Positions 7,696 to 8,649 of a stretch of DNA of 33,872 nt are shown one piece after another (position 1 is the stretch's first letter; every line of letters starts with the position of its first letter). A program made the position numbers and the translations under genes. Source of the DNA: Clostridium sp. CAG:575. GTDB taxonomy: Bacteria > Bacillota > Clostridia > TANB77 > CAG-508. Under the pieces are notes generated by a model. The model had not been told where the DNA came from, searched no databases, and saw nothing but the letters and a program-made list of their open reading frames with translations. The stretch is taken from the NCBI GenBank assembly GCA_000435535.1, contig FR884534.1, forward strand, positions 1 to 33,872. Direction: 5' to 3'.

Positions 7696-8649
7696 TTATT
7701 CTGTTACTTCTTCAGCGTTTTCTACAACTTCTTCCATTGATGCTGGTTCTGTTGTTTCAACTTGTTCTTCGCTTTCTTCAGCTTCAAAGCTTTCACCTTG
7801 TTTACCTTCGATAACTGCATTTGCCATAACATCTGCTATTAATTTAACAGCTCTTATTGCATCATCGTTTCCAGGAATTGCATAATCAACTTCTTCTGGA
7901 TTGCAGTTTGTATCTACTAAACCAATAACTGGTATATTTAATTTTTTAGCTTCTAATATTGCTATGTGTTCTTTTTTAGGATCTACTAAGAATATAACTC
8001 CTGGTAATTTATCCATTTCTTTGATTCCACCTAAGTTTCTTTCTAGTTTATCCATTTCTTTCTTTAATAAGATTACTTCTTTTTTAGGTAATCTATCAAA
8101 TGTTCCATCTTCTTGCATTGTTTCTAAGTCTTTTAATCTTTGTACTCTTGTTCTAATTGTTTCAAAGTTTGTTAACATTCCACCTAACCATCTTTGATCA
8201 ACATAGTACATTCCTGATTTGATTGCTGCGTCTTTAACACATTCTTGTGCTTGTTTTTTTGTTCCTACGTCAAATGTACCATCTTCTTGCATTTTTTCTA
8301 AATCTTTTAATCTTTGTACTCTTGTTCTGATTGTATCGAAGTTTGTTAACATTCCTCCTAACCATCTTTGGTCAATATAGTACATTCCTGATTTTTCTGC
8401 TGCTTCTTTAACACATTCTTGTGCTTGTTTTTTTGTTCCTACAAATAGAACTGTTTTTCCTTCTTCTGCTTGTTCTTTTAAGAAAGCATATGCTTCATCG
8501 ATTTTTTTAGATGTTTTTTGTAAATCGATTATATGGATTCCGTTTCTAGCTTGGAATATATATTCAGCCATTTTAGGATCCCATCTTCTTGTTTGATGTC
8601 CAAAGTGAACACCTGCTTCAAGTAATTGTTTCATTGCAACTACTGCCAT
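7696..8649 (-). CDS. rpsB: Ribosomal protein S2 with internal 58-residue tandem duplication
   Basis: S2 binds late to the head of the 30S subunit. The N-terminus MAVVAMKQLLEAGVHFGHQ is classic, and I start at the ATG at 8649 because GGGAGG lies 8 bases upstream; the open frame continues to 8694. The product is 317 residues, where a usual S2 with its tail would be about 259. The excess is an exact in-frame tandem repeat. A segment from VGTKKQAQECV to MQEDGTFD occurs twice in a row, with 53 of 58 residues identical. After the second copy the normal sequence resumes at RLPKKEV. The C-terminal tail is acidic. The duplication covers part of the alpha/beta core and the start of the coiled-coil helix, so it should disturb the fold unless one copy is looped out. 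It may be real or an assembly chimera of two alleles. Confidence 0.95.
   Translation of the reverse strand: MAVVAMKQLLEAGVHFGHQTRRWDPKMAEYIFQARNGIHIIDLQKTSKKIDEAYAFLKEQAEEGKTVLFVGTKKQAQECVKEAAEKSGMYYIDQRWLGGMLTNFDTIRTRVQRLKDLEKMQEDGTFDVGTKKQAQECVKDAAIKSGMYYVDQRWLGGMLTNFETIRTRVQRLKDLETMQEDGTFDRLPKKEVILLKKEMDKLERNLGGIKEMDKLPGVIFLVDPKKEHIAILEAKKLNIPVIGLVDTNCNPEEVDYAIPGNDDAIRAVKLIADVMANAVIEGKQGESFEAEESEEQVETTEPASMEEVVENAEEVTE
8095..8442 (-). repeat. In-frame tandem duplication inside rpsB (2 x 174 bp)
   Basis: Copy 1 is 8269-8442 and copy 2 is 8095-8268, directly adjacent on the minus strand. By eye about 14 of 174 bases differ, giving 5 amino-acid changes (E/D, E/I, I/V, D/E, K/T). The other changes are mostly at third codon positions. 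The unit is exactly 58 codons, so the frame is kept. Confidence 0.95.

What the first reader, a model, noticed from the sequence alone, without database searches (positions are those of the whole stretch)
8095..8442. Ribosomal protein S2 carries an exact 58-codon tandem duplication
Two adjacent copies of 174 bases lie inside rpsB, in frame, with 53 of 58 residues identical and about 14 base differences by eye. S2 is normally very constant in length. The repeated part spans a core beta-alpha unit and the base of the coiled-coil arm. If real, one copy must be extruded or the fold altered, giving an unusual 30S subunit. The silent differences mean it is not a simple read-duplication error; either the duplication is old or two strain alleles were joined during assembly.
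Basis: partly seen in the sequence, partly recalled or inferred. Interest (0 to 1): 0.8.

Follow-up and report, generated by a model that had tools for sequence, protein, structure and literature searches.

The report
Two rpsB alleles joined in tandem
A ribosomal protein gene on this contig carries its middle section twice, but the two sections look like versions from two related gut bacteria stuck together, most likely during sequencing or assembly, rather than a truly unusual ribosome.

Summary
In detail: rpsB (minus strand, 7696-8649) encodes a 317-aa S2 with two head-to-tail 174-nt units, in frame, 160/174 nt and 53/58 aa identical. The reading 'duplicated S2, unusual 30S' is not supported. 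All 85 distinct rpsB CDS extracted from relatives are single copy. The joint is in 0 of 390 family genomes and 0 of 110 loci, and among 224 fetched S2 proteins only in the window's own, which is known from one contig. The copies are not sisters: copy 1 differs from rpsB of two other species at 7 sites, but from copy 2 at 14. N-part plus copy 1 falls inside a clade, copy 2 plus C-part outside it (AU p = 0.0285; 0.117 on the repeat alone). Four other S2 proteins, each on one contig, carry different internal repeats. Best explanation: two orthologous alleles joined out of register, probably a library or assembly chimera. Against it: only about 3 shared bases at the joint, an intact frame, and contig arms that agree with one clade. 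A natural recombinant is not excluded; reads would decide.

The parts
7696..8649 (-). rpsB as it stands on the contig, 317 aa, stop included
   Evidence: PF00318 at E 4.9e-125 in two overlapping stretches
8443..8649 (-). N-terminal part of S2 before the repeat (residues 1-69)
   Evidence: 4 of 207 nt from L051 and from L061
8269..8442 (-). copy 1 (residues 70-127)
   Evidence: 7 of 174 nt from L005 and from L061, 14 from copy 2
8095..8268 (-). copy 2 (residues 128-185)
   Evidence: nearest relative L079 at 11 of 174 nt
8266..8271 (-). joint GAC|GTA between copy 1 and copy 2; the shared GTA (8266-8268) is the only overlap seen between the ordinary exit of copy 1 (FD-V-LPKKE in 54 of 85 relatives with GTA) and the ordinary entry of copy 2 (LF-V-GTKKQ)
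   Evidence: joint pattern found once in the window
7699..8094 (-). C-terminal part of S2 after the repeat
   Evidence: first 297 nt at least 26 differences from every full-length relative compared

Best explanation
The tandem is a join of two orthologous single-copy rpsB alleles from two related uncultured gut Clostridia. One allele supplies the start of the gene to the end of copy 1; the other re-enters 174 nt further upstream in the gene and supplies copy 2 to the stop. Shown: two orthologue-like copies that are not each other's closest relatives, no relative with the tandem, and a joint seen on one contig only. Inferred: that the join arose outside the cell (a chimeric library molecule, or loose merging or gap closing between co-occurring strains), so that the real genomes carry ordinary S2 of about 259 aa.
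For: Single copy in 85 of 85 distinct rpsB CDS (107 CDS extracted from 110 loci); joint pattern in 0 of 390 family genomes and 0 of 110 loci, where the ordinary entry pattern is in 110 of 110; joint peptide in 1 of 224 fetched S2 proteins, the window's own, one sequence on one contig. Copy 1 is nearer to L005 and L061 (7 differences each) than to copy 2 (14). N-part plus copy 1 falls beside L061 inside a supported group, copy 2 plus C-part just outside it; holding them together is rejected at p = 0.0285. 0 of 174 bases of either copy is private among 85 relatives, and at the 14 differing sites both states are in use elsewhere. Five amino-acid differences match ordinary orthologues at this distance (mean 4.7 in 399 pairs). 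Four other S2 proteins have different internal repeats, each on one contig, three with copies that are not identical.
Against: The repeat alone does not reject sister copies (p = 0.117). The joint shares only about 3 bases, too few for a k-mer assembler to confuse. The reading frame is kept. PMC8172020 (passages) holds that chimeric joins need long identical stretches.
Confidence: 0.75

Rival explanations
1. A real natural recombinant: imported DNA from a related species joined out of register inside rpsB by short-homology recombination, in frame; the 35-kDa S2 is tolerated with one unit extruded.
For: Explains two different alleles, the intact frame and the 3-base overlap, and contig arms that fit one clade. 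P0003, P0005 and P0008 share the window's last 30 residues exactly but differ from one another in the body, as interspecies exchange in rpsB (or more chimeras) would give.
Against: Not seen in any other genome or contig examined. Structure prediction could not show that the protein folds: its single-copy control was also poor.
Confidence: 0.14
2. An ordinary tandem duplication within one genome that has since diverged.
For: Exact head-to-tail register and open frame; the repeat-only tree does not reject sister copies.
Against: Copy 1 is twice as close to two other species as to copy 2. A duplication as old as the species split should be shared by relatives, and 85 of 85 distinct CDS lack it. 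All differences use bases already in use in other species; of single-base amino-acid changes only about one in six would land on such a state.
Confidence: 0.08
3. A large-scale chimera: the whole upstream arm and the whole downstream arm of the contig come from different genomes, joined at rpsB.
For: The gene upstream of rpsB in the window matches no upstream neighbour in the loci examined, and the 17.7-23.9 kb fatty-acid block is best matched by genomes outside the rpsB clade among 173 of 210 scored.
Against: The gene upstream of rpsB varies among relatives anyway. Clade members G189 and G002 match parts of 16.0-19.9 kb at 79-86%, and the far upstream end fits the clade again, G003 at 85-89%.
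Confidence: 0.03

Closest known systems
Bacterial ribosomal protein uS2 (PF00318), encoded by rpsB
   Same: Sequence, domain match, and the downstream neighbours
   Different: 317 aa with residues 70-127 repeated as 128-185, against 232-273 aa in the relatives extracted
Other S2 proteins with an internal repeat: P0002, P0004, P0007, P0121
   Same: S2 with one internal in-frame repeat, each on one contig
   Different: Different places and offsets (67, 47, 94 and 51 aa); the copies in P0004 are identical in protein, 47 of 47
Chimeric contigs between related genomes in metagenome assemblies (passages of PMC11261854 and PMC8172020)
   Same: Sequence of two related organisms on one contig
   Different: The passages describe joins between genomes or at contig ends, in one case tied to long identical stretches; an internal tandem in a conserved gene is not described in the passages seen

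Membership tests
uS2 / Ribosomal_S2 (PF00318) | Profile match above Pfam's cut-off | tested here: met
   415 bits against a cut-off of 26.1, two overlapping stretches
uS2 / Ribosomal_S2 (PF00318) | One copy of the segment between GTKKQ and PKKE, 58 residues | tested here: not met
   Two copies here; one in 85 of 85 distinct CDS of relatives
uS2 / Ribosomal_S2 (PF00318) | Incorporation in the 30S subunit | not testable with these tools
   Needs ribosome mass spectrometry or expression
Tandem duplication within one genome | The copies are each other's closest relatives | tested here: not met
   Copy 1 is 7 from L005 and L061 but 14 from copy 2; the formal test on the repeat alone does not reject sisterhood (p = 0.117)
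Tandem duplication within one genome | Shared by close strains or sister species | tested here: not met
   0 of 390 family genomes and 0 of 110 loci; no genome of the window's own species was at hand
Chimera of two alleles | The two parts come from different lineages | tested here: inconclusive
   Supported inside rpsB (AU p = 0.0285), not by the window's tsf or the far ends
Chimera of two alleles | Mixed alleles or a depth break at the joint in the reads | not testable with these tools
   No reads available
Chimera of two alleles | The joint is not seen in independent data | tested here: met
   One contig in the protein collection; 1 of 224 fetched proteins

The most novel reading that the evidence does not exclude
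Out-of-register recombination between species of this clade really produces enlarged S2 proteins that work in ribosomes. The window and P0002, P0004, P0007 and P0121 would be five independent cases, making S2 a ribosomal protein whose core and arm base tolerate whole extra units.
Probability: 0.1. Interest if true: 0.65.

Novelty: not a real feature. Interest (0 to 1): 0.12.

Why it matters
If the join is an artefact, it warns that conserved single-copy genes in strain-rich gut metagenomes yield in-frame chimeric proteins that enter databases and pass profile searches. If it were real, an essential ribosomal protein of nearly constant length would tolerate a 58-residue duplication of its core.

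Tried and rejected
Structure: AlphaFold on the 317-aa protein (45-row alignment) gave mean pLDDT 43.2, pTM 0.32. The single-copy control P0006 (43 rows) gave only 55.0, pTM 0.47. The alignments hold close relatives only, so neither model says whether the duplicated protein folds; no fold search was run.

Synteny upstream: 84 loci have over 1 kb upstream of rpsB; the neighbour varies (the largest group is found in 28 loci) and none matches the window's glucosaminidase gene. An unmatched neighbour therefore proves nothing. In that of 110 loci were skipped because rpsB was not found on their + strand.

Whole-contig chimera: the fatty-acid block first looked discordant. In one search, 37 of 210 genomes were not scored, among them clade members G186 and G189; G189 and G002 match parts of the block, and the far end fits the clade. 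Kept only as a weak rival.

Papers: four searches showed no title or abstract start about a tandem repeat inside bacterial S2; they cover only the open-licence library, 15 of 187 papers were listed, and one search found none. Passages read: PMC11261854 and PMC8172020; the rest were seen as listings.

Rows dropped: L057 came out nearest for the C-part (9 differences) only because its extracted CDS is shorter than 297 nt; it was removed before the trees, leaving 84 of 85, of which the 45 nearest were used. could not parse L057, and L108 lacked one motif by a variant residue.

Full report
What is there. rpsB lies on the minus strand (7696-8649, stop included) and starts with the conserved MAVVAMKQLLEAGVHFGHQTRRW. 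Residues 70-127 (8269-8442) and 128-185 (8095-8268) are the same S2 segment twice, head to tail, 174 nt each, in frame, with 14 base differences and 53 of 58 residues alike. Pfam's Ribosomal_S2 and each of the 60 PDB chains shown match in two stretches. Downstream come tsf and pyrH (named by recall from their ORFs), then a ribosome recycling factor, a polyprenyl synthetase, an undecaprenyl diphosphate synthase, a cytidylyltransferase and an M50 peptidase by Pfam. The window's own genome is not held.

Relatives have one copy. A scan of genome contigs gave 503 relatives, of which the best 80 were kept, all uncultured Clostridia or close kin by record title. In the genus of locus L051 (handle G003), 207 of 210 genomes match the gene, 17 of them by my count only weakly (E above 1e-7); in the listed rows, a cut list, none runs across the joint, and each half of the query pairs separately with the relative's single gene. 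From 110 loci 107 CDS were extracted; they reduce to 85 distinct sequences, and all 85 have exactly one 58-residue segment between the landmarks. A degenerate pattern for the joint was found once in the window, in 0 of 390 genomes drawn from the family and in 0 of 110 loci, where the ordinary entry pattern was found in 110 of 110. In a collection of about 5.8 billion proteins, 8000 candidates were scored and 120 listed; the query's own entry stands for one sequence on one contig of 36,547 bases. The joint peptide is in no other of the 224 proteins fetched by two such searches.

The copies are not sisters. Copy 1 differs from rpsB of L005 and L061 at 7 of 174 sites; copy 2 is at least 11 from every relative; the copies are 14 apart. 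The N-part plus copy 1 is 11 of 381 from L061. The first 297 nt of the C-part are at least 26 from any full-length relative (L012), and 30-34 from L061, L051, L079 and L058, which are 16-26 from one another there. On a tree of 45 relatives, N-part plus copy 1 falls beside L061 inside a supported group and copy 2 plus C-part falls just outside it; forcing the two together is rejected at p = 0.0285. On the 174 columns alone the same test does not reject (p = 0.117). No base of either copy is private among the 85 relatives, and each of the 14 differing sites shows two states that are both in use elsewhere; this is also the rule for the relatives themselves, 63 of 85 of which have no private base. 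Five amino-acid differences is what ordinary orthologues at this distance show (mean 4.7 in 399 pairs), while of single-base amino-acid changes only about one in six would land on a base already in use. So the two copies look like two functional single-copy genes, not like a gene and its drifting spare.

Not alone, but never the same. Among the 224 fetched S2 proteins five have a long internal repeat: this one and P0002, P0004, P0007 and P0121. They differ in place and length, and each stands on one contig (1147, 12,243, 1295 and 75,744 bases for the four). The ranking favours such proteins, so five of 224 is not a rate. In four of the five the copies are not identical in protein (53/58, 60/71, 76/81 and 41/54), and in P0002, P0007 and P0121 a similar short word stands at the joint and at the ordinary entry (KKL.EAYAF, MEE.P, LGG). 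All are in frame, but a protein search shows only frames that stay open. P0004 has identical copies (47/47) and could be something else.

Points against a chimera. The joint shares about 3 bases (GTA), which a k-mer assembler would not confuse, so a chimeric molecule, a gap closer or a loose merge must be assumed. The frame is kept. The window's tsf is as close to the clade as L061 is to L051 (its pyrH is a little farther, 88.1-88.6% against 90.8-92.6% among L061, L051 and L079). Both far ends of the window agree with the same clade: downstream, rows of 77-79% to G186, G003, G004, G002, G161, G005, G189 and G001, against 70-75% for nearly all other listed rows, with one shorter row of 81% to G196; upstream, pyruvate kinase and phosphoglucose isomerase at 85-89% to G003. 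Upstream of the rpsB promoter region the neighbourhood differs from relatives, but it varies among them anyway. The structure prediction was uninformative, as its single-copy control also failed.

Verdict. The most likely cause is the out-of-register joining, outside the cell, of two alleles of rpsB from two related gut Clostridia (0.75). A natural recombinant gene (0.14), a duplication within one genome (0.08) or a large-scale chimera (0.03) cannot be excluded without reads. That assemblers produce chimeric contigs is on record: PMC11261854 reports 22.15 per genome for megahit and 2.63 for SPAdes in its mock data (passages); PMC8172020 reports Salmonella-E. coli chimeras in a mock community, at contig ends, and holds that such joins need long identical stretches (passages), which is not the case at this joint.

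Noticed in passing
window 4712-5787: An ORF of 340 aa (4757-5779, minus strand), weakly like the DUF2207 C-terminal domain and below Pfam's cut-off, lies between pyrH and the ribosome recycling factor gene. In 9 of 9 relatives compared the two flanks lie only about 10-130 bases apart (gaps read from the coordinates), so this looks like an insertion in the operon, or another join.
   Followed up: partly
P0003, P0005, P0008 against P0001: These S2 proteins end in exactly the same 30 residues as the window's S2, in a tail that otherwise varies, but differ from one another in the conserved body: mosaic alleles by recombination, or more chimeric contigs.
   Followed up: partly
P0002, P0004, P0007, P0121: Four further S2 proteins with different internal in-frame repeats, each on one contig; P0121 joins two clearly different alleles (41/54) at LGG on a 75.7-kb contig.
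   Followed up: partly
window 16055-26388: A fatty-acid synthesis block (enoyl-ACP reductase, carboxylase subunits, ketoacyl synthase, acyl transferase, AMP-binding enzyme). In the stretch 17.7-23.9 kb its best matches are genomes outside the rpsB clade, with G189 and G002 of the clade matching parts at 79-86%: patchy or exchanged within the genus.
   Followed up: partly
window 8650-8800: About 150 bases upstream of rpsB are kept at 74-91% in 8 close relatives (L013 too short to count) while the gene beyond varies; by eye they hold a promoter-like TTGCAT-17-TATAAT. No Rfam family reaches its gathering score in the window.
   Followed up: no
window 10215-11069: A 284-aa ORF with a Fic/DOC match just below Pfam's cut-off, next to the glucosaminidase gene (8825-10138) that lies upstream of rpsB.
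   Followed up: no
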